From Triparma columacea (lineage: Eukaryota; Sar; Bolidophyceae; Parmales; Triparmaceae), in the NCBI GenBank assembly GCA_030267965.1, contig BRYA01000112.1, forward strand, positions 1 through 64,000: 64,000 nt of DNA. The letters are read 5' to 3'. The notes under the pieces were generated by a model. It did no database searches. It worked only from the letters and a program-made list of their open reading frames with translations, and was not told where the DNA came from. Made by a program: the position numbers and the translations under genes. Below are positions 1-36,184 of this stretch, in pieces (within the stretch, counting starts at the first letter, position 1; each line of letters opens with the position of its first letter).

Positions 1-64
1 CTAACCCTAACCCTAACCCTAACCCTAACCCTAACCCTAACCCTAACCCTAACCCTAACCCTAA
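1..64. repeat. Telomere, CCCTAA repeats
   Basis: About ten perfect CCCTAA units begin at base 1 and break into CA-rich DNA at about 65. The C-rich strand reads 5' to 3' inward, as at the left end of a chromosome; the G-strand is TTAGGG. This fixes the window as a true chromosome end. Confidence 0.97.
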
Positions 65-1220
65 CACACACACACACACCTCTATCTTATTCTCTTCTCT
101 TCCCTATTATCTTCTCTCAACTCCTCTAACACACTCACACACACACTCTTTCTCTCTCTCACACACACATACATCCATACACACACACACACACACATCC
201 CTTCTTTATTCCCTTCTTTCACTTACTCTTTACTCCCAACTCCTTTTACACACCCACAAACTCACACACAATCTCTCCCTCTCACACACACACACTCACA
301 CCACTATACTTCATGCCCTCCTTGCCACTTCCCTCTTCTCTCAACTTCTCCTTCTCTTCTCTCTCTCTCACACACACACGCACACTCAAACACCACTCCA
401 CCTTCACACCTTCCTCTCTGCTACTCATTCCCCTCAAATCCTCTCTCTCTCACACACTCACACAGTTGCCCACTTTTATTTATCCCAAACCACCCAACTT
501 CATTCTCTCGCACTGCCTCTCCCTACCTCTTCACATCTCTCTCTCCTTCACTGCTTCCTGTTCCCAACTTACCTGATCCCTTCTCCTTCATCTCTCCTGA
601 TACCAACCATTAACTAAAATACACTCTCTTAACGCTGAACCTACTTGCAAAACAACAACATGACTCCCCAACAACCTCACTCCTCCCCTCTCCTCCCCCT
701 CTCTCTCGCCTACACAATACTCTCCCCACACACGTCCTTCCCTTACCCTCAGTCTCCCACCCCCACATCCAACAAACCTCTTTATCATAACACACTACTA
801 AAGAGTGAAACCTAGAACAAAGCGATGCAACGGTTGAGCAAAGCATTTAACAGCAATGACACAAGCAAGTGATCTATTAGTCACTAATAGACCAAATCAA
901 ATCAATTTGTCTTACAAATGTTCCTGCCTCTTTAGTTACTCCCAATCCTTATCTAAACACTGCTTACTTTAGCTTTCCCGCCGCCTTTTCTACCTCGCTT
1001 CCTACCTCAGTCCTGCCTCTGCCGCCCCTCCGCCGCCTTTCCCTGCGTCCTCCCCCCGCATTGTCTTTCACCTTGTGTCCTCCCCACTTGCAGCCTCCTC
1101 TCCCTGTACCCCCCCCTGGGGCGTCCTCTTCCCCCTGCCGCCACCACCCAAGCAGAATGACCTTGAATTGTTTGGAACGAGGGAACTTGGTTAACTGTTG
1201 CAGACAGGCTTTCGACAGCC
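65..1220. repeat. Subtelomeric simple-sequence DNA, no gene seen
   Basis: From 65 to about 800 the sequence is almost entirely C/T and C/A low-complexity DNA with many CACACA and CTCTCT runs. The open frames in it are compositional. From about 800 to 1220 complexity rises, but I see no supported coding region. The last part lies downstream of the multi-START gene on the minus strand. Confidence 0.8.
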
Positions 1221-16398: not shown

Positions 16399-18897
16399 TT
16401 ACACAAATTCCAGAATAACTCTCCAAATAGCCTTCGGGAGCCTCTTGCGTGCCACAGTTCCCTGAAACGCGACCACTTCATCTCCGTCATTATCCGATCC
16501 GGGCTGGTTCTCCAAGTCGTCATTCCAGGGTGTCTCCAGGCACGACAGAACGGCGACGCGTTCAAGTATGCGGTGCCACCTAGAATTGAGGAGGTCCTCG
16601 ACAGTCGACATATTTTGATCGGCAGCGGCAGAGATTAGGACGGTGCAGTGTAAGAAGCAGTTTTTACCGATGGAGACGGCAGGAGATAGAAATAGTTTGG
16701 TCAGGGAGGAGCATCCGTAGAAGGCGCCATCGCCTATCGTCGTCACTGAGTCCGGGATGGTGATGGCTGCGAGGGAAGAGCATTGCCTGAAGGTGGCATC
16801 GCCAATCGACGACACTGAGTCCGGGATGGTGATGGCTGCGAGGGAGGAGCATCCGTTGAAGGCGCCACAGCCAATCGTCGTCACTGAGTCCGGGATTGTG
16901 ATGGCTGCGAGGGAGGGGCATTCGAAGAAGGCGCCCTCGCCAATTGTCGTCAATCCGTCCGGGATCGTGGTGGCCGTGAGGGAGGAGCATCCGTAGAAGG
17001 TGCATTTGCCAATCATTGTCACTCCGTCCGGGATGGTGATGGCCGTGAGGGAGGAGCATCTGAAGAAGGCATGATCGCCAATCGTTGTCACAGAGTCTGG
17101 GATTGTGATGGCTGCGAGGGAGGAGCATCCTTCGAAGGCGTGTTCGCCAATCGTCGTCACTCCTTCCGGGATTGTGATGGCTACGAGGGAGGAGCAACTC
17201 GCGAAGGCGCCACAGCCAATCGTCGTCACTGAGTCCGGGATTGTGATGGCTGCGAGTGAGGAGCATAGAGAGAAGGCGCCACAGCCAATCGTTGTCACAG
17301 AGTCCGGGATTGTGATGGCTGCGAGGGAGGAGCATTCGTAGAAGGCATTATCGCCAATCGACATCACTGAGTCCGGGATTGTGATGGCTGCGAGGGAGGA
17401 GCATCCTGCGAAGGCGCCAGCGCCAATCGTCGTCACTCCTTCCAGGATTGTGATGGCCGCGAGGGAGGAGCATCCGCAAAAGGCGCCCTCGGAAATCGTC
17501 GACACTCCATCTGGGATTGTGATGGCTGCGAGGGAGGAGCATCCTCCGAAGGCGTTTTCGCCAATCGTCCTCACTCCTTCCGGGATTGTGATGGCTGCGA
17601 GGGAGGAGCATCCTGCGAAGGCGCCCTCGGCAATCGTCGTCACTCCGTCTGGGATTGTGATGGCTGCAAGGGAGGAGCATTCCAGGAAGGCGAAATGGCC
17701 AATCGTTGTCACTGGGTCCGGGATTGTGATGGCTGCGAGGGAGGAGCATTCCCTGAAGGCATGATTGCCAATCGTCGTTACTCCGTCCGGGATTGTGATG
17801 GCTGCGGGGGAGGAGCATCCTGCGAAGGCGTAATCGCCAATCGTAGTCACAGAGTCCGGGATTGTGATGGATGCGAGGGAGGAGCATCCTGCGAAGGCGA
17901 AATTGCCAATCTTAGTCACTCCTTCCGGGATTGAGATGGCTGCGAGGGAGGAGCATGCGTGGAAGTTCTTATCGCCAACCGACGTCACTCCGTCCGGGAT
18001 TATGATAACTGTGAGGGAGGAGCATCCTTCAAAGGCGCCAACGCCAATCGTTGTCACTCCTTCCGGGATTGTGATGGCTGCGAGGGAGGAGCATTCGTAG
18101 AAGGCGTAATTGCCAATCATCGTCACTCCGTCCGGGATTGTGATGGCCGTGAGAGAGGAGCATCCATTGAAGGCGCCCTTGCCAATCGTCGTCACTCCGT
18201 CCGGGATTGTGATGGCCGCAAGGGAGGAGCATCCGTTGAAGGCATGATAGCCAATCGTCGTCACTCCAACTGGGATGGTGATGGCCGTGAGGGAGGAGCA
18301 TCGGTAGAAGGCGCCAACGTCAATTGTCGTCACTCCGTCTGGGATTGTGATGGTTGCGAGGGCGGAGCATTCCTTGAAGGTGCCCTCGCCAATATCCGTC
18401 ACTCTGTCTGGGATTGTGATGGCTGCGAGGGAGGAGCATTCCCTGAAGGCGTAATCGCCAATCGTCGTCACTCCCTCCGGGATTTTGATGGCTGCGAGGG
18501 AGGAGCATCCGTGGAAGGCGTTATAGCCAATCGATGTCACAGAGTCCGGGATTGTGATGGCTGCGAGGGACGAGCATCCGTAGAAGGTGCCAGTGCCAAT
18601 TGACATCACTGAGTCCGGGATTGTGATGGCCTTGAGGGAGGAGCATCCCGCGAAGGCGCCCTCGTCAATCTCCGTCACTGAGTCCGGGATGGTGATGGCT
18701 GTGAGGGAGGAGCAATTTGCAAAGGCGCCCTCGCCAATCGTCGTTACTCCATCTGGGATGGTGATGGTTGCGAGGGAGGAGCATCCATAGAAGGCGTCAT
18801 TGCCAATCGTAGTCACTCCCTTTGCAAAAGTCACCTCTGTGAGTTCATGATCATCACGGAATGTCTCTATGCCAGAGTACACTGCTGAGCTGGGCAT
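16399..18897 (-). CDS. BspA-like (LRR_5) leucine-rich repeat protein, about 31 repeats
   Basis: Intronless, 832 aa. After a conserved family N-terminus (AVYSGIETF, then ELTEVTFAKGVTTIG) come about 31 repeats of 23 residues. Their consensus is AFxGCSSLAAITIPDGVTTIG, with one Cys per repeat. A conserved C-terminal region has SRWHRILERV, then RKRLPKAIWRVILEFV. There is no signal peptide or membrane segment, so it is predicted to be intracellular. It belongs to the LRR_5 family, where repeat solenoids bind proteins; the partner is unknown. It is the longest of five paralogs in this window and pairs with the gene at 19290-20219 in the same orientation. Long antisense open frames across it are artefacts of the repeats. 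Confidence 0.9.
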   Translation of the reverse strand: MPSSAVYSGIETFRDDHELTEVTFAKGVTTIGNDAFYGCSSLATITIPDGVTTIGEGAFANCSSLTAITIPDSVTEIDEGAFAGCSSLKAITIPDSVMSIGTGTFYGCSSLAAITIPDSVTSIGYNAFHGCSSLAAIKIPEGVTTIGDYAFRECSSLAAITIPDRVTDIGEGTFKECSALATITIPDGVTTIDVGAFYRCSSLTAITIPVGVTTIGYHAFNGCSSLAAITIPDGVTTIGKGAFNGCSSLTAITIPDGVTMIGNYAFYECSSLAAITIPEGVTTIGVGAFEGCSSLTVIIIPDGVTSVGDKNFHACSSLAAISIPEGVTKIGNFAFAGCSSLASITIPDSVTTIGDYAFAGCSSPAAITIPDGVTTIGNHAFRECSSLAAITIPDPVTTIGHFAFLECSSLAAITIPDGVTTIAEGAFAGCSSLAAITIPEGVRTIGENAFGGCSSLAAITIPDGVSTISEGAFCGCSSLAAITILEGVTTIGAGAFAGCSSLAAITIPDSVMSIGDNAFYECSSLAAITIPDSVTTIGCGAFSLCSSLAAITIPDSVTTIGCGAFASCSSLVAITIPEGVTTIGEHAFEGCSSLAAITIPDSVTTIGDHAFFRCSSLTAITIPDGVTMIGKCTFYGCSSLTATTIPDGLTTIGEGAFFECPSLAAITIPDSVTTIGCGAFNGCSSLAAITIPDSVSSIGDATFRQCSSLAAITIPDSVTTIGDGAFYGCSSLTKLFLSPAVSIGKNCFLHCTVLISAAADQNMSTVEDLLNSRWHRILERVAVLSCLETPWNDDLENQPGSDNDGDEVVAFQGTVARKRLPKAIWRVILEFV

Positions 18898-19289
18898 CTC
18901 GGGGAGGATGAAAGTGGTAGTACTGATAGCGCTCGGGCTAAGATATGGCGTGAATGCTTAGATTGAGAGGAGGAAGGAGATTGAAAGGTGGGGTTTGGAC
19001 GTGTAGTTTTGTTGGGGACCAAATTTAAGCTAAAACTACAATGTGTTTGAATATGATGTAGGTAGTAGTATCGTTGTGTTTGTATTGTGAAGAGTTAGGT
19101 CGGTTGTAAAGAGTATCTAAAGCCTATAATAAAGCCTTAATACAGCTTTCTTGCAATGATGCCCAATCTTTCTCAAAATTGAACAATTCTCAAAATGGTT
19201 TGAGGGTTTTGGAGCCTCCAAAAAAGAAAACGTTTGTTCGTAAATATTTGGGAACCCTTTCTGCATGCCGTTCAACGGTTTCTTTAGAG
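18898..19289. other. Conserved flank of the LRR_5 family
   Basis: It holds the upstream region of the 832-aa gene and the 3' flank of the next paralog. The 3' flank includes CCTCCAAAAAAGAAAACG and TTCGTAAATATTTGGGA, also found in altered form near 16330, 25140 and 28500. No gene is seen. Confidence 0.7.
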
Positions 19290-20219
19290 TTACACAAATT
19301 CCAGAATAACCCTCCACATATCCTTCGGGAGCCTCTTGCGTGCCGCAGTTCCCTGAAACACGACCACTTCATCTCCGTCAAGGCGCTTCAACTTCAGCTT
19401 ATCCGATCCGGGCTGGTTCTCCAAGTCGTCATTCCAGGGTGCCTTGAGGCAGGACAGAACAGTGACGCGTTCAAGTATGCGGTGCCACCTAGAATGGAGA
19501 AGGTCCTCAACAGTCGACATATTTTGATCGGCAGCGGCAGAGATTAGGGCAGTGCAGTTCAAGAAGCAGCCCTCACCGATGGAGACGGCAGGAGATAAAC
19601 TGAGTCTCGTCAGGGCGGTGCATCCGTAGAAGGCGTAATCGCCAATCGTTGTCACTCCGTCCGGGATTGTGATGGCTGCGAGGGCGGAGCACTCGTTGAA
19701 GGCGTAATCGTCAATAGTCGTCACTCCGTCAGGGATTGTGATGGCCGTGAGGGAGGAGCATTTGCAGAAGGCCCAGTCGCCAATCGTCCTCACTCTGTCA
19801 GGGATTATGATGGCTGCGAGGGAGGAGCATCCGCAGAAGGTGTTATAGCCAATCGACGTCACTGAGTCCGGGATGGCAATGGCCGTGAAAGAGGCGCATC
19901 CGAGGAAGGCGCATTCACCAATCATTGTCACTCCGTCCGGGATTATGATGGCTGCGAGGGAGGAGCATCCGTTGAAGGCGCCACAGCCAATCGTCGTCAC
20001 TGAGTCCGGGATTGTGATGGCTGCGAGGGAGGAGCATCTGGAGAAGGCGAAATGGCCAATCTTCGTCACCCCGTCCGGGATTGTGATGGCTGCGAGGGCG
20101 GAGCAACAGACGAAGGCCTCATCGCCAATCGTCGTCACTCCCTTTGCAAAAGTCACCTCCGTGAGTTCATCGTTGTCACTGAAGCTCTCTATGCCAGAGT
20201 ACACTGCTGAGCTGAGCAT
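19290..20219 (-). CDS. BspA-like (LRR_5) leucine-rich repeat protein, short paralog
   Basis: Intronless, 309 aa, about eight 23-residue repeats. The same N-terminus (AVYSGIESF, ELTEVTFAKGVTTIG) and C-terminal block (SRWHRILERVTVLSCLKAP ... RKRLPKDMWRVILEFV) occur as in the 832-aa neighbour. The two differ mainly in repeat number, so units were gained or lost while the caps were kept. No signal peptide. Upstream sequence of more than 150 bp is shared with the paralogs. Confidence 0.88.
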   Translation of the reverse strand: MLSSAVYSGIESFSDNDELTEVTFAKGVTTIGDEAFVCCSALAAITIPDGVTKIGHFAFSRCSSLAAITIPDSVTTIGCGAFNGCSSLAAIIIPDGVTMIGECAFLGCASFTAIAIPDSVTSIGYNTFCGCSSLAAIIIPDRVRTIGDWAFCKCSSLTAITIPDGVTTIDDYAFNECSALAAITIPDGVTTIGDYAFYGCTALTRLSLSPAVSIGEGCFLNCTALISAAADQNMSTVEDLLHSRWHRILERVTVLSCLKAPWNDDLENQPGSDKLKLKRLDGDEVVVFQGTAARKRLPKDMWRVILEFV

Positions 20220-20981: not shown

Positions 20982-23900
20982 TTAGATTGTGGTGCAATTG
21001 TTTTGGCCCTGCACGTACTGTCCGGAGCCAGAGGTGGTACCGTCAGGGCAATCAATACATAATCCGTTAGTGGGGGGTTCCAGATTAGTTCCTGATTGGC
21101 CGGAGTTAGCGAACATGTTCTGAAAATTGCCGACATCGCATATGTTCCAGACCGTGACGTCCTTGTTAAAGGCACTTGCGCCCTCGAACATTTGCTTCAT
21201 GTCAGTGACACTCGAGACATCCCAACTCCCAATATTCTGGTTGAAGACATAAGCGTTACTGCGTATATTTCAATGCCGAGTGGAGATGTGCGAGATGAGA
21301 TTTGCGTTTGCGTGTGTGAATGTTAGAATGAGAAGCGAGTATATTACTTAAAATAGAATGCAGCAAACATAACACGCAAACCACAAAGTCCTCATCTCCA
21401 AAGCATCTCTCAATACTCACAAGAACATATATGCCATGTTAGTGACACTCGAGACATCCCAACTCCCAATATCCTGGTTGAAGTCAAATGCCTGACTGCG
21501 TTTAATTTAATGCCGAGTGGAAATGTGCGAGATTAGATTTGCGTGTGCGTGTGTGAATGTTAGAATGAGAAGCGAGTGTATTACTTAATATAGAATACAA
21601 CAAAAACAACACGCAATCCACGAAGACCTCATCTCAAAAGCATCTCTCAATACTCACCTGAACATACCCCTCATGTTAGTGACACTCGAGACATTCCAAC
21701 TACCAATATCCTGGTTGAAGACATATGCCTTACTGCGTTGAATCCAATGCCGAGAGGAGATGTGCGAGATGAGATTTGCGTGTGCGTGTGTAAATGTTAG
21801 AATGAGAAGCGAGTGTATTACTTAATATAGAATGCCACAAAGATAACACGCAAACCATGAAGACCTCATCTCCAAAGCATCTCTCAATACTCACGTGAAC
21901 ATATAAGGCATGTCAGTGACACTGGAGACATTCCAACTCCCAATATTCTGGTTGAAGACAACTGCCAAACTGCGTTTAATTCAATGCCGAGTGGTGATGT
22001 GCGAGATGAGATTTGCGTGTGCGTGTGTGAATGTTAGAATGAGAAGCGAGTGTATTACTTAATATAGAATACAACAAAAACAACACGCAAACCACGAAGA
22101 CCTCATCTCCGAAGCATCTCTCAATACTCACTAGAACATATCAGACATGTCAGTGACACTCGAGACATTCCAACTCCCAATATTCTGGTTGAAGGCCTTC
22201 GCGTAACTGCGTTGAATTCAATGCCGAGTGGAGATGTGCGAGATGAGATTTGCGTGTGTGAATGTTAGAATGAGAAGCGAGTATATTACTTAAATTAGAA
22301 ATGCAGCAAAGATAGCACGCAATCCACGAAGACCTCATCTCCAAAGCATCTCTCAATACTCACCTGAACATATACTTCATGTCAGTGACACTCGAGACAT
22401 CCCAACTCCCAATATCCTGGTTGAAGTCATAAGCGAAACTGCGTTCAATTTAAGGCCGAGTTGAAATGTGCGAGAAGAGATTTGCGTGTGAATGTGTGAG
22501 TGTATGTTAGAATGAGAAGCGAGTATATTGCTTAAAATAGGATGCAGCAAAGATATCACGCAAACCACAAAGACCTCATCTTTAAAGCATCTCTCAATAC
22601 TCACCGGAACATATACTTCATATCAGTGACACTCGAGACATCCCAGCTCCCAATAGTCTTGTTGAAGGCTTGAGCGGAACTGCGTTTGATTCAATGCCGA
22701 GTGGAGATGTGCGAGATGAGATTTGCGTGTGCATGTGTGAATGTTAGAATGAGAAGCGAGTATATTGTTTAATATAGAATGCCGCATAGATAACACGCAA
22801 ACCACAAAGACCACATCTCCAAAGCAACACTCAATACTCACATGAACATATTATCCATGTTAGTGACACTCGAGACATCCCAACTCCCAATATCCTGGTT
22901 GAAGACAACTGCCTGACTGCGTTTAATTCAATGCCGAGTGGAGATGCGCGAGGTGAGATTTGTGTGTGTGCGTGTGTGAATGTTAGAATGAGAAGCGAGT
23001 GTATCACTTAAAATAGAATGCAGCAAAGATAGCACGCAAACCACGAAGATCTCATCTCCAAAGCATCTCTCAATACTCACCGGAACATATACCTCATGTC
23101 AGTGACACTCGAGACATCCCAACTCCCAATATCCTGGTTGAAGTCATAAGCGTCACTGCGTTGAATTCAATGCCGAGTGGAGATGTGCGAGATGAGATTT
23201 GCGAGTGCGTGTGTGAATGTTAGAATGAGAAGCGAGTGTAATACTCAATATAGAATGCAGCAAATATAGCACGCAAACCACAAAGACCTCGTCTCCAAAG
23301 CATCACTCAATACTCACCGGAACATATACCCCATGTCAGTGACACTCGAGACATCCCATCCGCTGATGTCCTCGTTGAATGTAGATTGACCAGAGAATGC
23401 ACTTGACATGTCAGTGACATCCCTCGTGCACCTGCTCAGCCGGCGATTTGATTTTGGTCCGCAGGGGGCGGATTGCCGAGAGGAGAATATAAGGGTTAGT
23501 TGTTACTGGGGCTTGCGTGTTCATCTTCCCGTGATGCTTCATTGTCCCGTCCAACTTTGTTCGCCTGCCCACCACATAGTCCCCTCTGCATCCTCTGTAC
23601 TCGCTAGTATTTCCAACTACTTACCAGTTCGCGATGTTGCCGTATGTGCTTATCGCAAGGGGTTGATTAGTAAACCAGAGATCAAGTGCCGTTGGGAAGC
23701 TACTATCGTCGAGGCAGAATTCCTTGGCGCACGTGCACGTGCAGTTGCCGGGGAAGTAACCCCACTGCCAGTTAGCAGGGCCGGGGCCGCAGTTCCTCTT
23801 TTTGACTCTGTTGAAAGTAGCTTCGTCGTCAGAAACAATCGCGTTGACAAGTTTGCTTTCGATAACAGAGCAAAGCTTCGTCCTTGGGCCCTTGGTACTA

Positions 23901-24282
23901 TGAATCTTGTCAACCGAGTCAAACAAGAGGCCGGAGTGGGTGCAGGCGTGGGAGTAGGAGTAGGGACGGGAGTGGGTGCAGGCGTCGGGTTGTCAGTGGG
24001 CCCAGTGAAGTCCATGGCACACGTGCACGTGCAGTTGCCGGGGAAGTAACCCCACTGCGAGGTAGCAGTGCCGGGGCCGCAGTTCCTGTTAAAGACTTTG
24101 TTGAACTCAGCTGCGTCGTCCTGGTTGTTCGCTGAGATCAGTTTGTTTTGGATAACAGAGCAAAGCTTCGTCCTTGTGGTTCTCGTGCTAGAGATCGGGC
24201 TGGTTGTTTCCTCACAAGAATCTTCCGCGAAAGTGGTGTAAACCAGGAGGACGAAGAGGAAAGTAATAACTAGTATCTTCAT
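20982..24282 (-). CDS. Secreted DUF285/BspA-type repeat protein A, one 25-residue repeat per exon (11 exons, one probable 1-nt error)
   Basis: Exons: 24282-23625, 23431-23318, eight of exactly 75 nt (23155-23081, 22916-22842, 22679-22605, 22438-22364, 22206-22132, 21969-21895, 21732-21658, 21495-21421) and 21258-20982. Every intron is phase 2. Exon 1 encodes a signal peptide (MKILVITFLFVLLVYTTFA) and two copies of a Cys-rich module of about 75 residues (RTKLCSVI ... NCGPG ... QWGYFPGNCTCTCA). A Pro/Thr stalk separates the two copies. Each 75-nt exon gives one repeat of the FNQDIGSWDVSSVTDMxxMF type. The last exon ends in a Cys-containing tail, CIDCPDGTTSGSGQYVQGQ. Exon 1 changes frame between the Cys-rich copies near 23921; one extra T in the TTT run restores it and gives the length needed by the phase-2 donor. 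Secretion or surface display is inferred. Confidence 0.88.
21259..23317 (-). repeat. Exon-intron tandem array in gene A, period about 237 bp
   Basis: Each unit is a 75-nt exon plus an intron of 157-166 nt (mostly 162). Introns start GTGAGTATTGAGAGATGC, carry TGCGTGTTATCTTTG-like and ACACACGCACACGCAAATC blocks, and end CAACGCAG or CAAACGCAG. Introns are as similar to one another as the exons are. Confidence 0.95.
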
Positions 24283-24369
24283 GTTATATTGCTGCGGAGC
24301 GATTCGATTGGAGAGAGTTAGAATTAAGTCTGACAGGAGGCTTCTTTGTTTGTTTGTTTTGTGTCCGAA

Positions 24370-24512
24370 GAAAAGTGTCCAATATATCCTCTTTGTGACG
24401 TCTAGGAGGTTAAAAGTGCCATTACCAATGATAATAACTTATGACAGGCGGCTTCTTATTGGGCCCCGAGGAAAAGTGTCCAATATATCCTCTTTGTGAC
24501 GTCTAGGAGGTG
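24370..24512. repeat. Direct repeat upstream of gene A
   Basis: A block of about 41 bp beginning GAAAAGTGTCCAATATATCC and ending GACGTCTAGGAGG is present at about 24370-24410 and 24471-24511, each preceded by a GGCTTCTT variant. It is a local duplication in the promoter-proximal region. Confidence 0.85.
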
Positions 24513-24654
24513 AAAGTGCCCTTTCAGCGATACTAACTAATACGTTTGTCCCCATATCGACAGTACATATATTGATATACCCCTCTGATGGCCAAATAAT
24601 CGCACAGAAAACAATAGGTCGACAAGTCATAAGCATGAGGGGTCAATTTTCACC

Positions 24655-24772
24655 ATATTTGGGGGCGTATGCGAGAAAGAAGTCAATAAATGGTATAATG
24701 ATAGCAAGATTTGAGTTTTTGAGGAGAGCCTAGGAGTAAAGGCGCCCGATATTGGTATAAATACTGACCTGA
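24655..24772. repeat. Module shared by the upstream regions of genes A and B (copy A)
   Basis: A segment of about 118 bp contains CAATAAATGGTATAATGA, then GGCGCCCGAT and GGTATAAAT. It matches 28315-28431 upstream of gene B over its length. It could be shared promoter DNA or the edge of the duplication that produced the two genes. Confidence 0.8.
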
Positions 24773-25119
24773 CTTACTAAAAATCTGACAATCGCACTTC
24801 CCACCAAAATCTGTTCCTTCAACATCTTGTTCTTTCTCAATGTTCAATTATTTGGGGAATCCTCTAAATTTTCCCCACCCGCAATGTTTAAAAAGAGCGC
24901 AACCCTAATCTCTGACTTAGTAGCCCCCCCCCCCCTCCCCCCCCCCAAAAAGAGTGAAGTAGATAAACATGTGTTGAACTAATTGGTCCCATTCATCTCT
25001 TTTTTGCACAGCTTTGTCATTTGAGACGTCCCGACGCCGAAAATAATCCTACGAAAAATCTGTCACATATCATTCCAAATGGCGCTCCATCTCTCTCTAA
25101 CCCTAACCCCCAAATAAAT
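24773..25119. other. Intergenic DNA between repeat genes A and B, no gene seen
   Basis: Includes a poly-C tract (24921-24945) and a short telomere-like CTAACCCTAACCCCC at about 25097-25112. Confidence 0.6.
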
Positions 25120-25262
25120 GGTTTGAGGTTTTTGGAGCCTCCAAAAAAGAAAACGTTTGTTCGTAAAGAGAAAAAGAAATCGTTGGTTCGTAAATTTGTT
25201 GGGACCCTTTTGCATGCCGTTAAACGGTGACTTTAGAGTTACAGAAATTCCAGAATAACTGT
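25120..25262 (-). pseudogene. Relic of the 3' end of an LRR_5 family gene
   Basis: This stretch matches the downstream flank and the last few codons of the LRR_5 paralogs. It has GGAGCCTCCAAAAAAGAAAA, a TTCGTAAA block (duplicated here), TGCATGCCGTTAAACGGTGA and GAAATTCCAGAATAAC, the last being the complement of the conserved C-terminal codons. The match stops abruptly in a CCCTGT repeat, so the body of the gene is gone. Confidence 0.75.
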
Positions 25263-25371
25263 CCCTGTCCCTGTCCCTGTCCCTGTCTCTGTCCCTGCCC
25301 TTGCCCTTGCCCTTGCCCCCCTTACTCCTCGTCCGATGCGTCCTCGTCTGATGTGTCCTCGTCCGATATGT
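25257..25371. repeat. Hexamer and 15-mer tandem repeats at the breakpoint of the relic
   Basis: CCCTGT/CCCTTG hexamers run from about 25257 to 25320. Three copies of a 15-bp unit (CCTCGTCCGATGCGT-like) follow at about 25327-25371, ending just before the stop codon of gene B. Confidence 0.9.
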
Positions 25372-25375
25372 CCGC

Positions 25376-28087
25376 CTACTCTGAAGTGCAAGGGTTTTGG
25401 CCCTCTACGTACTCTCCGGAGCCAGAGGTGGAATTGGCAGGGCAAGCTATGCACTGTCCGTTTGCGGGGGGTACCAGATTAGTTCCTGGTTGGCCGGAGT
25501 TGTCGAACATGAAAGCAAAATTGCCATCCGGATCCGGGAGGATAGGAGGATAGGTTAGGACTTTGCAGACGTTCCAGCCTGTGACGTTCTTGTCAAAGGC
25601 ACTTGCGTAATTGAACATATACTGCATGTCAGTGACACTCGAGACATCCCAACTCCCAATATCCTGGTTGAAGACAGCTGCATTACTGCGTTTAATTTAA
25701 GGCCGAGTGGAGATGTGCGAGATGAGATTTGCGTTTGCGTGTGTGAATGTTAGAATGAGAAGCGAATGTATTACTTAAAATAGAATGCAGCAAAGATAAC
25801 ACGCAAACCACAACGACCTCATCTCCAAAGCATCTCTAAATACTCACGCGAACATACCAGACATGTCAGTGACACTCGAGACATCCCAACTCCCAATATC
25901 CTGGTTGAAGTCAAATGCCTGACTGCGTTTAATTTGATGCCGAGTGGAGATGTGCGAGATGAGATTTGCGTGTGCGTGTGTGAATGTTAGAATGAGAAGC
26001 GAATGTATTACTTAAAATAGAATGCAGCAAATATAACACGCAAACCATGAAGACCTCATCTCCAAAGCATCTCTCAATACTCACGCGAACATTTGTTTCA
26101 TGTAAGTGACACTCGAGACATTCCAACTCCCAATATCCTGGTTGAAGACATAAACGTTACTGCGTTTGATTCAAGGCCGAGTGAAGATGTGCGAGATGAG
26201 ATTTGCGTGTGCGTGTGTGAATGTTAGAATGAGAAGCGAGTATATTACTTGAAATACAATGCCGCAAAATAGCACGCAAACCACAAAGACCTCATCTCCA
26301 AAGCATCTCTCAATACTCACTTGAACATTCCAAACATGGTAGTGACACTCGAGACATCCCACCTTCCAATATCCTGGTTGAAGACATAAGCGCCACTGCG
26401 TTTAATTTGATGCCGAGTGGTGATGTGCAATATGAGATTTGCGTGTGCGTGTGTGAATGTTAGAATGAGAAGCGAGTATATTGCTTAAAATAGGATGCAG
26501 CAAAGATATCACGCAAACCACAAAGACCTCATCTCCAAAGCATCTCTCAATACTCACACGAACATATTATCCATGTTAGTGACACTCGAGACATTCCAAC
26601 TCCCAATATCCTGGTTGAAGTTTTCTGCGCGACTGCATTGAATTCAATGCCGAGTGGTGATGTGCGAGATTAGATTTGCGTGTGCGTGTGTGAATGTTAG
26701 AATGAGAAGCGAGTGTATTACTTAAAATGAAATGCAGCAAAGATAGCACGCAAACCACGAAGACCTCCACTCCAAAGCATCTCTCAATACTCACTAGAAC
26801 ATATCAGACATGTCAGTGACACTCGAGACATCCCAACTCCCAATATTCTGGTTGAAGGCAGAAGAAGAAGAAGAAGAAGCCTGACTGCGTTGAATTCAAT
26901 GCCGAGTGGAAATGTGCGAGATTAGATTTGCGTGTGCGTGTGTGAATGTTAGAATGAGAAGCGAATGTATTACTTAAAATAGGATGCAGCAAAGGTAACA
27001 CGCAAACCACGAAGACCTCATCTCAAAAGCATCTCTAAATACTCACAAGAACATATCAGACATGTCAGTGACACTCGAGACATTCCAACTCCCAATATCC
27101 TGGTTGAAGACACTAGCGCCACTGCGTTTATTTCAAGGCCGAGTGGAGATGTGCGAGATGAGATTGGCGTGTGCGTGTGTGAATGTTAGAATGAGAAGCG
27201 AGTGTATTACTCAAAATAGAATGCAGCAAAGATAGCACGCAAACCACAAAGACCTCATCTCCAAAGCATATCTCAATACTCACAAGAACATACGATACAT
27301 GTTTTTGACACTGGAGACGTCCCATCCGCTGATGTCCTCGTTGAATGTAGACCAGCCAGAGAATGCACTTGACATGTCAGTGACATCCCTCGTGCACCTG
27401 CTCAGCGGGCGATTTAATTTGGGTCCGCAGGGGGCGGATTGCCGAGAGGAGAATATAAGGGTTAGTTGTTACTGGGGCTCGCGTGTTCATCCTCCCGTGA
27501 TGCTTCATTTTCCCGTCCTACTTTGTCCGCCTGCCCACCACATAGCCCCATCTGCATCCTCTCTACTTGCTCGTTCTTCAAACTACTTACCAGTCCGTGA
27601 TGTTGCCGTATGTCCTTGCCGCAAGGGTAGGATTAAAAAACCAGGCATCAAGTGCCGGTTTGAAGGTTTGATCGTCGAGGCAGGGAAACACAGGAGTAGG
27701 CACGGGAGTGGGCGCACGCCTAGGGGGAGTAGTCGCGGGAGTGGGCGCAGGCGTCGGGCTGTTGCCCTTGTTGCCCTTGTTGCCCTTGTTGCCCTTGTTG
27801 CCCTTGTTGCCCTTGTTGCCCTTGTTGCCCTTGTTGCCCTTGTTGCCCTTGTTGCCCTTGTTGCCCTTGTTGCCCTTGTTGCCCTTGTTGCCCTTGTTGC
27901 CCTTTTTGCTCTTCTTGCCGTTAGCAAAGATAATGTTGACATTGTCGCTGATGTCATTACCGCCAAAGGCAAAGTCCTGTAGGCCTCTTGAAGGGGACCT
28001 TAGCGATTTGTCAGTCCCGTGGGTAGTGATGACGAGGAGTACGAAAACTAGCAGCAAAGTAGCGAACAAAGTGACTAGTGACTTCAT
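25376..28087 (-). CDS. Secreted DUF285/BspA-type repeat protein B, one 25-residue repeat per exon (9 exons)
   Basis: Exons: 28087-27591, 27397-27284, 27121-27047, 26884-26795, 26632-26558, 26395-26321, 26159-26085, 25922-25848 and 25685-25376. All introns are phase 2, the frame is intact, and the product is 461 aa. Start chosen at 28087 because MKSLVTLFATLLLVFVLLV is a good signal peptide. Exon 1 then encodes about 16 Lys-Gly-Asn triplets, a Pro/Thr stalk and a short globular segment. That segment ends YGNITDW, the same junction as gene A. Six repeat exons follow: five of 75 nt and one of 90 nt with a Ser-rich insertion from an AAG-type microsatellite. The final exon ends CIACPANSTSGSGEYVEGQN, matching gene A. 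It is a tandem paralog of A with a different N-terminal module. Surface or wall location is inferred. Confidence 0.92.
25686..27283 (-). repeat. Exon-intron tandem array in gene B, period about 237 bp
   Basis: Seven introns of 161-162 nt alternate with repeat exons. Intron sequences are nearly the same as in gene A (GTGAGTATTGAGAGATGC ... CGCAG). Confidence 0.95.
27764..27903 (-). repeat. 9-bp minisatellite encoding (Lys-Gly-Asn)n
   Basis: About 16 perfect TTGCCCTTG units on the + strand lie in exon 1 of gene B. They encode a strongly basic, extended, stalk-like stretch right after the secreted N-terminus. Confidence 0.95.
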
Positions 28088-31982: not shown

Positions 31983-33023
31983 ATGCCCAACTCAGTAGTG
32001 TACTCTGGCATAGAGAGCTTCTGGGATGATCGTGAACTCACAGAGGTGACTTTTGCAAAGGGAGTGACGACGATTGGCGATAGCGCCTTCAGGGGATGCT
32101 CCTCCCTCACGGCCATCACAATCCCGGAAGGAGTTACGTCGATTGGCTATCACGCCTTCCACGGATGCTCCTCTCTCACGGCCATCACCATCCCGGACGG
32201 AGTGACAAAGATTGACAGAAGGGCCTTCGCTGGATGCTCCTCCCTCACGGCCATCACCATCCCAGATGGAGTAACGACGATTGGCAATTACGCCTTCTCT
32301 GGATGCTCCTCCCTTGCAGCCATCACAATCCCAGACGGAGTGACGTCGATTGGCAATGAAGCCTTCAGGGAATGCTCCTCAATCGCAGCCATCACAATCC
32401 CGGATGGAGTGACGACGATTGGCTATTCCGCCTTCTTGGGATGCTCCTCCCTCACGGCCATCACCATCCCAGATGGAGTAACGACGATTGGCAATTACGC
32501 CTTCAGGGGATGCTCCTCCCTCGCAGCCATCACCATCCCGGACGGAGTGACGACAATTGGCGAACACGCCTTCGAAGACTGCTCCTCCCTCGCAGCCATC
32601 ACCATCCCAGATGGAGTAACGACGATTAGCGATTTTGCCTTCTACGGATGCTCCTCCCTCGCAACCATCAAAATCCCGGACTCGGTGACCACGCTTAATT
32701 ATGTGGCCTTCTCCGGCTGCACCGCTCTGACGAGATTCATTCTATCTCCTGCCGTCTCCGTCGGTTTCGACTGCTTCTCAAACTGCACTGCCCTAATCTC
32801 CGCCGCTGCCTCACAAAACATGCCGACTGTCGAGGACCTCCTCAATTCTAGGTGGCACGCCATACTTGAACGCGTCACCGTTCTGACCTGCCTCAAGATA
32901 CTCTTTACGGACCAAAGAAAGAGGAAGCGACAGGACGGAGGTGAAAAGCAAACACTTGGGGTTACTGCGACACGCAAGAGACTCCCGAAAGTTATGTGGA
33001 GAGTTATTCTGGAATTTCTGTAA
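31983..33023 (+). CDS. BspA-like (LRR_5) leucine-rich repeat protein, about 10 repeats
   Basis: Intronless, 346 aa. N-terminus MPNSVVYSGIESF followed by ELTEVTFAKGVTTIG, then about ten 23-residue GCSSLTAITIPDGVTTIG repeats. The C-terminal cap has NSRWHAILERVTVLTCLK and RKRLPKVMWRVILEFL. No signal peptide or membrane span. Its C-terminal region is nearly the same as that of the next gene, marking a recent tandem duplicate. Confidence 0.9.
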   Translation: MPNSVVYSGIESFWDDRELTEVTFAKGVTTIGDSAFRGCSSLTAITIPEGVTSIGYHAFHGCSSLTAITIPDGVTKIDRRAFAGCSSLTAITIPDGVTTIGNYAFSGCSSLAAITIPDGVTSIGNEAFRECSSIAAITIPDGVTTIGYSAFLGCSSLTAITIPDGVTTIGNYAFRGCSSLAAITIPDGVTTIGEHAFEDCSSLAAITIPDGVTTISDFAFYGCSSLATIKIPDSVTTLNYVAFSGCTALTRFILSPAVSVGFDCFSNCTALISAAASQNMPTVEDLLNSRWHAILERVTVLTCLKILFTDQRKRKRQDGGEKQTLGVTATRKRLPKVMWRVILEFL

Positions 33024-33448
33024 GCTCTAAAATCAATGTTTAACAATGTAGGCAAGAAAGTTTCATAGTCTTTAGCTCGTTTCAGAAGTGATGTGCTCAT
33101 GCTGCTCCCTGAGCTATTTTAGAGTAGCTCTCACAAGTAGAGGAAAAATAAATGAGGAAAATGAGGAAAACCTTGGGGGGGGAGATTTGGGCAGAATTTG
33201 ACAAGAAAACTGTATCATACACTTGAGCTACGTTTCACAACCAACCTAACTCTTCGTAATACCAACAACAATACTACTACCTACATCATATCCCAACACA
33301 TTGTAGTTTTAGCTTAAATTTGGTCTCCAAAACTACATCGCCAAATACCTACCTTCCAATCCCCTCCTCTCCATCTAATCATTCACGCCGTACCCCAGCA
33401 TACTCTAGCTCGAGCGCTGTCAGCACTATTACTTTCATCCTTCCCACA
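33024..33448. repeat. Duplicated intergenic block between LRR_5 paralogs (copy 1)
   Basis: The 3' flank (AACAATGTAGGCAAGAAAG, TTTAGCTCGTTTCAGAAG, AGAGTAGCTCTCACAAG) and the following upstream block recur almost unchanged at 34352-34780. Confidence 0.85.
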
Positions 33449-34351
33449 ATGCCCAACTCAGCAGTGTACTCTGGCATAGAGACATTCATTGATGATCATG
33501 AACTCACAGAGGTGACTTTTGCAAAAGGAGTGACGTCGATTGGCGATAGCGCCTTCAGCGGATGCTCCTCCCTCGCAGCCATCATAATCCCGGACTCTGT
33601 GACGTCGATTGGCAATTACGCCTTCAGGGGATGCTCCTCCCTCGCAGCCATCACCATCCCCGACGGAGTGACAACGATTAGCGAACGCGCCTTCTACAGA
33701 TGCTCCTCCCTCGCAGCCATCACAATCCCAGATGGAGTAACGACGATTGGCGGTTACACCTTCTTGGGATGCTCCTCCCTCACAGCTATCACAATACCGG
33801 ACGGAGTGACGATAATTGGCGGGTGCGCCTTCTACGGATGCTCCTCCCTCACAGCCATCACAATCCCGGACTCAGTGACGATAATTGGCAGAAGCGCCTT
33901 CAACAGATGCTCCTCCCTCACGGCCATCACAATCCCTGACGGAGTGACGACAATTGACGAAAATGCCTTCTACGAATGCTCCTCCCTCACGGCCATCATT
34001 ATCCCGGACGGAGTGACAACGATTGGCGAACGCACCTTCTACGGATGCACCGCCCTGACTCGACTCAGTTTATCTCCTGCCGTCTCCGTCGGTATCTACT
34101 GCTTCTCAAACTGCACTGCCCTAATCTCTGCCGCTGCCTCACAAAACATGCCGACTGTCGAGGACCTCCTCAATTCTAGGTGGCACGCCATACTTGAACG
34201 CGTCACCGTTCTGACCTGCCTCAAGACACTCTTTACGGACGAAAAAAAGAGGAAACGACAGGACGGAGGTGAAGCGCAAACACTTGGGGTTACTGCGACA
34301 CGCAAGAGACTCCCGAAGGTTATGTGGAGAGTTATTCTGGAATTTCTGTAA
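33449..34351 (+). CDS. BspA-like (LRR_5) leucine-rich repeat protein, about 8 repeats
   Basis: Intronless, 300 aa. I start at the ATG at 33449 (MPNSAVYSGIETF) because it matches the start of all paralogs; an in-frame upstream ATG at 33320 would add residues with no family counterpart. About eight 23-residue repeats follow, then the C-terminal cap SRWHAILERVTVLTCLKTL ... RKRLPKVMWRVILEFL. Predicted intracellular. Confidence 0.88.
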   Translation: MPNSAVYSGIETFIDDHELTEVTFAKGVTSIGDSAFSGCSSLAAIIIPDSVTSIGNYAFRGCSSLAAITIPDGVTTISERAFYRCSSLAAITIPDGVTTIGGYTFLGCSSLTAITIPDGVTIIGGCAFYGCSSLTAITIPDSVTIIGRSAFNRCSSLTAITIPDGVTTIDENAFYECSSLTAIIIPDGVTTIGERTFYGCTALTRLSLSPAVSVGIYCFSNCTALISAAASQNMPTVEDLLNSRWHAILERVTVLTCLKTLFTDEKKRKRQDGGEAQTLGVTATRKRLPKVMWRVILEFL

Positions 34352-34780
34352 ATCTAAAATCAATGTTGAACAATGTAGGCAAGAAAGTTTCATAGTCTTT
34401 AGCTCGTTTCAGAAGTGATGTGCTCATGCTGCTCCCTGAGCTATTTTAGAGTAGCTCTCACAAGCAGAGGAAAAATAAATGAGGAAAATTAAATGGAAAA
34501 TGAGGAAAACCTGGGGAAGAGATTTGGGCAGAATTTGACAAGAAAACTGTATTATACACTTGAGCTACGTTTCACAACCAACCTAACTCCTCGTAATACC
34601 AACAACAATACTACTACCTACACCATAATCAAAAACATTGCAGGATTTAGCTAAATTTGGTCCCCAAAAAACTACATCGTCCACACACACCTAACTTTCA
34701 ATCTCCTCCTCCCCATCTAAGCATTTACGCTATATCTTAGCTCAAGCGCTATCAGTACTACCACATTTATCCTCCCCGAG
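34352..34780. repeat. Duplicated intergenic block between LRR_5 paralogs (copy 2)
   Basis: Counterpart of 33024-33448. It carries a short insertion around 34485-34500 (AAATTAAATGG) absent from copy 1. Confidence 0.85.
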
Positions 34781-36184
34781 ATGCCCAGCTCAGCAGTGTA
34801 CTCTGGCATAGAGAGCTTCCGTGATGATCATGAACTCACAGAGGTGACTTTTGCAAAGGGAGTGACGTCGATTGGCGATAACGCCTTCAGGGGATGCTCC
34901 TCCCTCGCAGCCATCACAATCCCGGACTCAGTGATGACGATTGGCATTAACGCCTTCAGCGGATGCTCCTCCCTCACGGCCATCACCATCCCGGACGGAG
35001 TGCCGACGATTGGCGATGAAGCCTTCGCGGATTGCTCCTCCCTCACGGCCATCACCATCTCGGACTCGGTGACAACGATTGGCGGTGCCGCCTTCAACAG
35101 ATGCTCCTCCCTCGCAGCCATCACAATCCCGGACTCTGTGACGATGATAAGCGATTACGCCTTCGCAGCATGCTCCTCCCTCGCAGCCATCACCATCCCG
35201 GACAGAGTGACAACGATTAGCGAACGCGCCTTCTGGGGATGCTCCTCCCTCACGGCCATCACCATCCCGGACGGATTGACAACAATTGGTGAAGGCGCCT
35301 TCTTGGGATGCTCCTCCCTCACGGCCATCACAATCCCTGACGGAGTGACGACAATTGACGAAAGTGCCTTCTACGAATGCTCCTCCCTCACGGCCATCAT
35401 TATCCCGGACGGAGTGACGACGATTGGCGAATACGCCCTCTTTGGATGCTCCTCCCTCGCAGCCATCACAATCCCAGACGGAGTGACGAAGATTGGCGAA
35501 AGAGCCTTCTTGGGATGCTCCTCCCTCACGGCCATCACCATTCCGGACTCAGTGACATCGATTGGCCCTTACGCCTTCAGGGAGTGCTCCTCTCTCGCAG
35601 CTATCATAATCCCGGACGGAGTGACGTCGATTGGTCAATGCGCCTTCTACGGATGCTCCTCCCTCGCAGCCATCACAATCCCGGACTCAGTGACGAAGAT
35701 TAGCGTTCACGCCTTCATGGGATGCTCCTCCCTCGCGGCCATCACAATCCCGGACGGAGTGACGTCGATTGGCATTTGCACCTTCGACGGATGCTCCTCC
35801 CTCGCAGCCATCACAATCCCAGACACTGTGACGACGATTGGCTATTGGGCCTTCGACAGTTGCACCGCCCTGACGAAACTCAGCTTATCTCCTGCCGTCT
35901 CAGTTCATATCGAAAGTTTCTCAAACTGCACTGCCCTAATCTCTGCCGCTGCCTCACAAAACATGCCGACTGTTGAGGACCTCCTCAATTCTAGGTGGCA
36001 CCGCATACTTGAACGCGTCACCGTTCTGTCCTGCCTCAAGAAACTCTTGGAGGACCAGCCCAGGAGATCGGATAGGCTGAAGCGGAAGCGCATTGACGGA
36101 GATGAAGTGGTCGCGCTTCAGGGAACAAAGGCATTCAAGAAGCTCCCGAAGGTTATGTGGAGAGTTATTCTGGAATTTCTGTAA
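34781..36184 (+). CDS. BspA-like (LRR_5) leucine-rich repeat protein, about 15 repeats
   Basis: Intronless, 467 aa. N-terminus MPSSAVYSGIESF then ELTEVTFAKGVTSIG; about fifteen 23-residue repeats; C-terminal cap SRWHRILERVTVLSCLKKL ... FKKLPKVMWRVILEFL. Its start and C-terminus are closer to the two leftward genes (MPSSAVYSG, SRWHRILERV, LKRKR, DGDEVVALQGT) than to the two genes beside it, so members have been mixed between clusters. Confidence 0.9.
   Translation: MPSSAVYSGIESFRDDHELTEVTFAKGVTSIGDNAFRGCSSLAAITIPDSVMTIGINAFSGCSSLTAITIPDGVPTIGDEAFADCSSLTAITISDSVTTIGGAAFNRCSSLAAITIPDSVTMISDYAFAACSSLAAITIPDRVTTISERAFWGCSSLTAITIPDGLTTIGEGAFLGCSSLTAITIPDGVTTIDESAFYECSSLTAIIIPDGVTTIGEYALFGCSSLAAITIPDGVTKIGERAFLGCSSLTAITIPDSVTSIGPYAFRECSSLAAIIIPDGVTSIGQCAFYGCSSLAAITIPDSVTKISVHAFMGCSSLAAITIPDGVTSIGICTFDGCSSLAAITIPDTVTTIGYWAFDSCTALTKLSLSPAVSVHIESFSNCTALISAAASQNMPTVEDLLNSRWHRILERVTVLSCLKKLLEDQPRRSDRLKRKRIDGDEVVALQGTKAFKKLPKVMWRVILEFL

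What the first reader, a model, noticed from the sequence alone, without database searches (positions are those of the whole stretch)
20982..28087. Two secreted-repeat genes built as one repeat per exon, all exons symmetric phase 2
Sequence: 13 internal exons are exactly 75 nt and one is 90 nt; each encodes one DUF285-type repeat, and all splice junctions are phase 2. Inference: any exon can be skipped, duplicated or exchanged without changing the frame, so one locus could produce many surface-protein lengths by splicing and evolve rapidly by unequal crossing-over. A genomic cassette library for a subtelomeric surface protein would be unusual in a microalga.
Basis: partly seen in the sequence, partly recalled or inferred. 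Interest (0 to 1): 0.88.

Follow-up and report, generated by a model that had tools for sequence, protein, structure and literature searches.

The report
Exon-per-repeat surface genes with hypervariable codons
In what appears to be a single-celled alga, two genes with secretion-signal-like starts (part of a family spread over dozens of places in the genome) carry each protein repeat on its own swappable exon, and the repeats look alike except for about six positions that vary very widely, as one would expect of a shuffled recognition repertoire, although no binding partner or transcript is known yet.

Summary
Two minus-strand genes (28087-25376 and 24282-20982) have 14 internal exons (13 x 75 nt, 1 x 90 nt), each one PF03382-type repeat; 16 of 16 repeat introns are phase 2.

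It is one instance of a genome-wide system. A 20-nt piece of the ~162-nt intron has 340 matches in this 37.9-Mb eukaryotic genome. In 39 fetched stretches plus the window I extracted 295 full introns and 236 short internal exons: 214 are 75 nt, 234 are open in phase 2. Codons 1, 3, 21, 22 and 25 (4 partly) are near saturation (pi 0.68); introns (0.107) and core third bases (0.094) are not. Variable blocks are nearly unlinked to each other and to the introns, and intron variants more than 3 nt apart are near linkage equilibrium: one recombining pool with diversifying selection.

The intron also sits in three unrelated genes in three phases (two copies shortened), once as a clear gain: introner-like.

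Splice-generated diversity is untested; germline shuffling is supported. Brown-algal ROCO LRR exons (72 nt, phase 2) are the nearest precedent found. The variable positions also occur in intronless and bacterial DUF285. New variant of a known kind.

The parts
27591..28087 (-). Gene A exon 1: signal-peptide-like start, GNK (collagen-like) repeat, PT linker, start of N-cap (CLDDQTFKPALDAWFFNPTLAARTYGNITDW)
   Evidence: collagen 34.9 bits; signal peptide judged by eye
27398..27590 (-). Gene A cap intron, GTAAGT...GCTGAGCAG, phase 2
   Evidence: absent exactly in L042 and L052
27284..27397 (-). Gene A N-cap exon (CTRDVTDMSSAF...FNEDISGWDVSSVKNMYRMF)
27047..27121 (-). Gene A repeat exon 1, 75 nt
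26795..26884 (-). Gene A repeat exon 2, 90 nt (Ser run)
26558..26632 (-). Gene A repeat exon 3, 75 nt
26321..26395 (-). Gene A repeat exon 4, 75 nt
26085..26159 (-). Gene A repeat exon 5, 75 nt
25848..25922 (-). Gene A repeat exon 6, 75 nt
25376..25685 (-). Gene A last exon: last repeat plus Cys-containing C-cap, stop TAG
25686..27283 (-). Gene A repeat introns, 7 copies (27283-27122, 27046-26885, 26794-26633, 26557-26396, 26320-26160, 26084-25923, 25847-25686)
23625..24282 (-). Gene B exon 1: signal-peptide-like start, Cys-rich motif in two copies, PT linker, N-cap start; reading frame changes between the two Cys-rich copies
   Evidence: signal peptide judged by eye
23432..23624 (-). Gene B cap intron, phase 2 in the downstream frame
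23318..23431 (-). Gene B N-cap exon
21421..23155 (-). Gene B 8 repeat exons of 75 nt (23155-23081, 22916-22842, 22679-22605, 22438-22364, 22206-22132, 21969-21895, 21732-21658, 21495-21421)
21259..23317 (-). Gene B repeat introns, 9 copies (23317-23156, 23080-22917, 22841-22680, 22604-22439, 22363-22207, 22131-21970, 21894-21733, 21657-21496, 21420-21259)
20982..21258 (-). Gene B last exon: last repeat plus C-cap, stop
1..65 (+). Telomere repeat CTAACC x 10.8

Best explanation
The two genes encode proteins with signal-peptide-like starts and a DUF285 (BspA-type) repeat domain between an N-cap and a Cys-containing C-cap. Each internal repeat is one symmetric phase-2 exon, and the repeat introns are copies of one mobile, introner-like intron that was amplified together with the repeat. 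Some 300 or more exon-intron units in dozens of arrays form one genome-wide pool that exchanges sequence by unequal crossing-over and ectopic conversion, so introns and core codons stay alike. A fixed set of codons (1, 3, 21, 22, 25, partly 4) is kept extremely diverse by selection. The likeliest job is recognition or adhesion outside the cell: residues at fixed positions of each repeat bind varied partners (bacteria, viruses, grazers or mates), and new specificities come from germline shuffling rather than splicing. Shown: gene structure, family scale, the diversity pattern, the near absence of linkage, the intron in unrelated genes. Inferred: actual splicing, secretion, one intron insertion followed by unit amplification, recombination as the cause of the missing linkage, and above all the recognition role.
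For: Exon and intron structure. Scale: 340 pattern matches, reversed-pattern control 0; N-cap motif before the first intron in 32 of 38 loci and C-cap motif after the last in 32 of 38. Diversity: HV first and second bases pi 0.678 (95% 0.659-0.688), intron 0.107 (0.102-0.111), third bases of 13 core codons 0.094, replacement core sites 0.011; JC ratio HV to intron 15.2 (13.7-16.8), bootstrap over loci. Linkage between HV blocks z -0.5 to 1.9 and across the intron z -1.5 to 3.1, but inside a block 2c-3 z 18.4 and 21-22 z 12.1. HV difference independent of intron difference (Spearman 0.06 and -0.02); intron divergence within and between loci 0.098 and 0.102. Intron r2 0.004-0.007 beyond 3 nt, null 0.0034; 12 of 26 common intron variants are transversions, which argues against recurrent mutation. 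Of 1055 residues at HV codons 0 are Cys, 2 His, 3 Pro, against about 54, 50, 26 expected from base composition. Mobile intron: L021 phase 0, L025 phase 2, L037 phase 1, nearest array introns 95-97% identical; intron missing from all other listed paralogs of the C92 gene.
Against: No transcript, protein, binding partner or strain comparison. The same variable positions occur in intronless repeats of this genome and in bacterial DUF285 genes, so the diversity does not depend on the introns; in 4 of 7 scored bacterial genes silent diversity is high too (0.23-0.56), so homogenised cores are not a rule there. Pooled intronless units of this genome fall into two sequence classes with silent diversity up to about 0.58. 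One silent site in the exons (third base of codon 2) is as diverse as the HV codons (0.61), which selection on residues alone does not explain; linked variation between two selected codons is my guess. Core codons 7, 8, 13 and 19 vary moderately. No signalling domain was seen in gene A. Structure prediction could not be run, so a common face is not shown. Gene B's 5' frame is interrupted. Only the window's two genes were looked at for a signal-like start.
Confidence: 0.6

Rival explanations
1. Splice-generated diversity: one locus makes many protein lengths by skipping symmetric exons, as in Dscam or as reported for brown-algal ROCO genes.
For: Nearly all repeat exons are symmetric, so skipping keeps the frame; ROCO genes with the same design have several splice forms (PMC11378527, passages).
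Against: Donor sites are near-uniform (291 of 295 GTGAGT), with nothing that marks exons as alternative; no transcripts available; array content differs strongly between genes in the germline.
Confidence: 0.12
2. Selfish amplification: the units spread as satellite-like DNA driven by an introner and the proteins have no selected function.
For: The intron is mobile and the units form homogeneous tandem arrays.
Against: 213 of 214 75-nt exons are open; replacement core diversity is 0.011 against 0.094 at core third bases; HV residues avoid Cys, His and Pro.
Confidence: 0.07
3. Structural adhesin or cell-cover protein: the variable residues are simply tolerant surface positions and there is no ligand-specific recognition.
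For: The same positions vary in bacterial DUF285 proteins; in 32 of 38 loci a C-cap follows the last intron and in 34 of 38 a stop lies within 450 nt, so an attached signalling part is not seen in most.
Against: Tolerant sites should not be more diverse than the neutral yardstick, yet they exceed introns about 15-fold, unless introns and silent sites are themselves constrained.
Confidence: 0.17
4. A targeted mutation process, like a diversity-generating retroelement, makes the HV codons variable.
For: Saturation is confined to a few codons; a silent site among them (codon 2 third base) is saturated too.
Against: Third bases of codons 24 and 5, close to HV codons, are nearly fixed (0.06); in 5 of 52 exon comparisons beside near-identical introns HV codons are identical although the introns already differ at 1-5 sites; strong residue bias.
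Confidence: 0.04

Closest known systems
Brown-algal ROCO LRR exon cassettes (Zambounis 2012 as cited there; Teng 2024, PMC11378527, abstract and passages seen)
   Same: Brown algae and, by its nearest relatives, this organism are both ochrophytes; one repeat per exon; exons of constant length (72 nt) in phase 2; repeats shuffled; selected sites at fixed repeat positions
   Different: Repeat is LRR on a ROC-COR GTPase; splice variants known there; here DUF285, 75 nt, signal-like start, with near-identical introns of a mobile kind
Fungal HNWD NLR WD40 repeats of high internal conservation (PMC12222747, PMC4986451, passages seen)
   Same: Concerted evolution of repeats, with a few hypervariable codons under diversifying selection
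   Different: WD40 repeats of intracellular NLRs; the word intron does not occur in PMC12222747's main text
Introners (PMC9860276, one passage seen; PMC7789003, listing only)
   Same: Near-identical introns in unrelated genes and phases; intron gain in one of many paralogs
   Different: Only three insertions outside the family confirmed (listing capped); here the intron mostly multiplied inside repeat units; no target-site duplication or terminal repeat recognised
Bacterial BspA/DUF285 surface proteins
   Same: Same repeat and same variable positions
   Different: Read as continuous genes without introns; different flanking domains
PRDM9 zinc fingers and lamprey VLR LRR cassettes (recalled, no call)
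   Same: Homogenised repeats with hypervariable contact residues
   Different: Other folds; VLRs are assembled somatically, for which nothing was tested here

Membership tests
DUF285 / PF03382 | Profile match above curated cut-off | tested here: met
   303.3 bits, cut-off 25, spliced gene A; spliced gene B was not scanned
Brown-algal ROCO LRR cassette genes | One repeat per exon, constant length, phase 2 | tested here: met
   (75 nt instead of 72)
Brown-algal ROCO LRR cassette genes | LRR repeats joined to a ROC-COR domain | tested here: not met
   Pfam finds DUF285 and a collagen-like stretch only in gene A
Brown-algal ROCO LRR cassette genes | Alternative splicing of repeat exons | not testable with these tools
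   no transcripts
Introner | Similar introns in unrelated genes and phases | tested here: met
   L021 phase 0 (133 nt), L025 phase 2 (165 nt), L037 phase 1 (117 nt)
Introner | Intron absent from close relatives (gain) | tested here: met
   every other listed paralog of the C92 gene crosses the site in one frame; C39 and C263 genes showed no paralog to test
Introner | Many insertions across the genome | tested here: inconclusive
   3 confirmed outside DUF285 plus C403 unread; one search listed 100 of 340 matches and (exact motif, donor context without C at -3) found 5
Introner | Target-site duplication or terminal inverted repeats | tested here: inconclusive
   none recognised by eye at the three sites; not present in all introner families (PMC9860276)
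Concerted-evolution recognition repeats (HNWD type) | Homogenised repeats with hypervariable codons | tested here: met
Concerted-evolution recognition repeats (HNWD type) | Variable residues lie on a binding surface | not tested
   structure server busy; no solved relative by sequence at E up to 1
VLR-type somatic assembly | Somatic rearrangement of cassettes | not testable with these tools
   one assembly only

The most novel reading that the evidence does not exclude
A mobile intron-making element landed between two repeats of a bacterial-type surface protein and so turned it into a symmetric exon cassette. The cassette then multiplied into one genome-wide, freely recombining library of some 300 or more hypervariable modules that serves a unicellular alga as an anticipatory recognition repertoire, with the intron as the shared recombination handle.
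Probability: 0.3. Interest if true: 0.85.

Novelty: new variant of a known kind. Interest (0 to 1): 0.66.

Why it matters
It would extend exon-cassette recognition repertoires from brown algae to what looks like a small relative of diatoms, on an unrelated repeat and probably outside the cell. It also links two separate debates: how introns arise (introners) and whether introns speed protein innovation by exon shuffling. Because the introns are homogenised together with the exons, the system carries a neutral yardstick inside each unit, so selection on the variable codons can be measured directly. If recognition is confirmed, it would give a testable basis for specificity between picoplankton and their viruses, bacteria or grazers.

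Tried and rejected
Considered and set aside: chance periodicity (frame test); HV diversity caused by the introns (intronless repeats show it too); recurrent mutation as the reason for absent linkage (12 of 26 common variants are transversions); a conserved intron RNA structure (consensus fold -3.06 kcal/mol over 120 sampled introns; four single introns fold at -29.1 to -37.7 without a shuffle control); a viral copy of the intron (0 exact 20-mer matches in viral contigs); relatives of the C-cap in the protein collection, hoped for as expression evidence (4 candidates, none significant). Subtelomeric enrichment is not established: the telomere listing covered contigs C2-C70 only; of the array contigs in that range that I had fetched (C2, C4, C47, C51) one, C2, is listed with a telomere. 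Rfam found nothing in the window. Rows dropped: of 214 75-nt exons 213 were kept (one has a stop), and the 22 other short exons were not used for diversity; 294 of 295 full introns were kept (one has N). Own-genome intronless control: 14 loci were looked at, 4 distinct arrays had enough units. Bacterial control: 7 of 11 loci had enough units. C-cap comparison: three pairs passed 93%; two differ in repeat content and one, L024.0 and L050.0, has identical HV codons in both paired exons. Structure prediction was asked for 8 times and never ran.
Full report
Observation. The region 20982-28087 holds two minus-strand genes. Sixteen introns of 157-166 nt, all GTGAGTAT...(C/T)GCAG, separate 14 internal exons, 13 of 75 nt and one of 90 nt, each coding one repeat of the type xAxxFNQDIGSWDVSSVTDMxxMFx; all 16 junctions are phase 2. 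The spliced gene A product matches PF03382 at 303 bits. The flaw in the gene picture is a frame change in gene B's first exon.

Is the splicing real? No transcript could be read. Indirect evidence is strong: 234 of 236 internal exons shorter than 400 nt, from 39 fetched stretches plus the window, are open in phase 2, against 22 and 169 in the other two offsets. Several copies lack an intron precisely at the predicted place, so that the DNA shows the spliced sequence: the cap intron in L042 and L052, the repeat intron within L038 and L052 exons of 150 and 300 nt. Retention would give a stop within two codons in 295 of 295 introns.

Scale. The window lies in contig C112 of a 37.85-Mb, 789-contig genome. 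A 20-nt piece of the intron has 340 matches at up to 2 mismatches, the reversed pattern none. In 39 stretches plus the window an intron profile found 302 copies, 295 of them full length. They form 56 groups with 1-23 introns each, one of them the non-DUF285 gene of L025. An N-cap motif precedes the first intron in 32 of 38 loci and a C-cap motif follows the last in 32 of 38; the misses are L025 (not DUF285), contig ends, N stretches and divergent copies. The longer gaps inside arrays mostly hold a C-cap followed by an N-cap, so some proteins probably have two or more repeat domains in a row. L036 ends in a transmembrane-like stretch by eye; in 34 of 38 loci a stop lies within 450 nt of the last intron.

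Diversity. Codons are numbered within the exon: one base, 24 codons, two bases; codon 25 is split by the intron. In 211 distinct 75-nt exons, codons 1, 3, 21, 22 and 25 are near saturation at first and second base and codon 4 at its second base; codons 7, 8, 13 and 19 vary moderately and the other core codons little. With a bootstrap over 34 loci, HV first and second bases have pi 0.678, introns 0.107, third bases of 13 core codons 0.094, replacement core sites 0.011; the corrected ratio HV to intron is 15.2 (13.7-16.8). The window's own 13 exons and 16 introns show the same (0.69, intron 0.096, core third bases 0.057, replacement 0.0). HV residues avoid Cys, His, Pro and Val and are rich in Gln, Phe, Glu, Arg, Gly, Tyr and Ser relative to base composition. 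The third base of codon 2, silent, is saturated as well (0.61); it is strongly linked to codon 3, so I read it as linked variation between two selected codons, an inference.

Linkage. HV codons are linked within short blocks (1-4 and 21-22). Between blocks z is -0.5 to 1.9, even across the six bases ATGTTC between codons 22 and 25 (0.2); across the intron, in 150 adjacent exon pairs, z is -1.5 to 3.1. HV difference does not track intron difference, and introns are as different within a locus as between loci. Within introns, common variants more than 3 nt apart have r2 0.004-0.007, null 0.0034, although 12 of 26 are transversions that are unlikely to recur. Beside 58 pairs of near-identical introns (up to 6 differences) 52 exon comparisons were possible: 41 differ at 6-15 of 18 HV sites, 6 at 1-4 and 5 at none. 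Gene A and L042.1 have C-caps 99% identical over 210 nt, yet all five exons paired from the C-end differ at 6-12 of 18 HV sites; L031.0 and gene B (96%) differ too, while L024.0 and L050.0 (94%) have identical HV codons in both paired exons. The simplest reading is one pool of units that recombines across the genome, with diversity at HV codons held up by selection.

Controls that limit the claim. Four distinct intronless arrays of the same genome, among 14 loci looked at, have the same HV positions and low silent diversity within each array (HV 0.60-0.67, silent 0.03-0.15). Pooled over 28 distinct intronless units, silent diversity is higher because two sequence classes mix. Seven of 11 bacterial loci could be scored: HV 0.47-0.68, silent 0.04-0.56; three of seven have silent diversity of 0.14 or less, four do not. 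So the introns are not the source of the variable positions, and the homogenised-core pattern exists in some bacterial DUF285 genes as well.

The intron moves. The same intron, 95-97% identical to its nearest array copy, lies in three unrelated genes, in phase 0 (C39), 2 (C92) and 1 (C263); only the C92 copy is full length (165 nt), the other two end early (133 and 117 nt). Joined on splicing, the frames are open for 174-199 residues before and about 40 (C39) to 200 (C92, C263) residues after the junction within the 600 nt examined. The C92 gene has a large family: 151 matches, and every listed match other than its own two crosses the intron site in one frame. One paralog, the first gene after the telomere in this window, aligns across the site without a gap. 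That is an intron gain. The listings were capped, so further insertions may exist; with three confirmed this is introner-like rather than a proven introner family, and which came first, the array intron or the mobile one, is open.

Organism. A kinase from the window is 97% identical to an unnamed metagenome protein; the nearest rows with a recognisable name are diatoms at 65% (a Pseudo-nitzschia model, label read from recall) and 58% (Fragilaria). The species was not identified.

Literature. 'DUF285' with 'exon' gave five papers; from titles and abstract starts none deals with exon-per-repeat genes. The nearest design found is brown-algal ROCO; the nearest evolutionary mode is fungal HNWD.

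Verdict.

Noticed in passing
window 16703-20141 and 32061-35854: Several arrays of 69-nt repeats in long open frames on both strands that look like BspA-type LRR_5; the one at 34781-36184 was scanned and matches PF13306 at 460 bits.
   Followed up: partly
window 1415-6334 (-): The first gene after the telomere, 1639 aa with no Pfam match, belongs to a family with 151 matches in the genome, many close to the start of a contig.
   Followed up: partly
G000 contig C70: Telomere repeats at 4-63 and, in the other orientation, at 75420-75461, so possibly a complete very small chromosome; 15 contigs of the capped list carry this repeat.
   Followed up: no
window about 23890-23940 (-): Gene B reading frame changes between two copies of a Cys-rich motif: a broken gene, an unseen intron or an assembly error.
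   Followed up: no
exon codon 2, third base, in 211 distinct exons: A silent site as diverse as the hypervariable codons (pi 0.61), linked to codon 3.
   Followed up: partly
window 27760-27919: A 9-nt minisatellite of 17.8 copies codes a (GNK)n collagen-like stretch in gene A.
   Followed up: no
   Followed up: no
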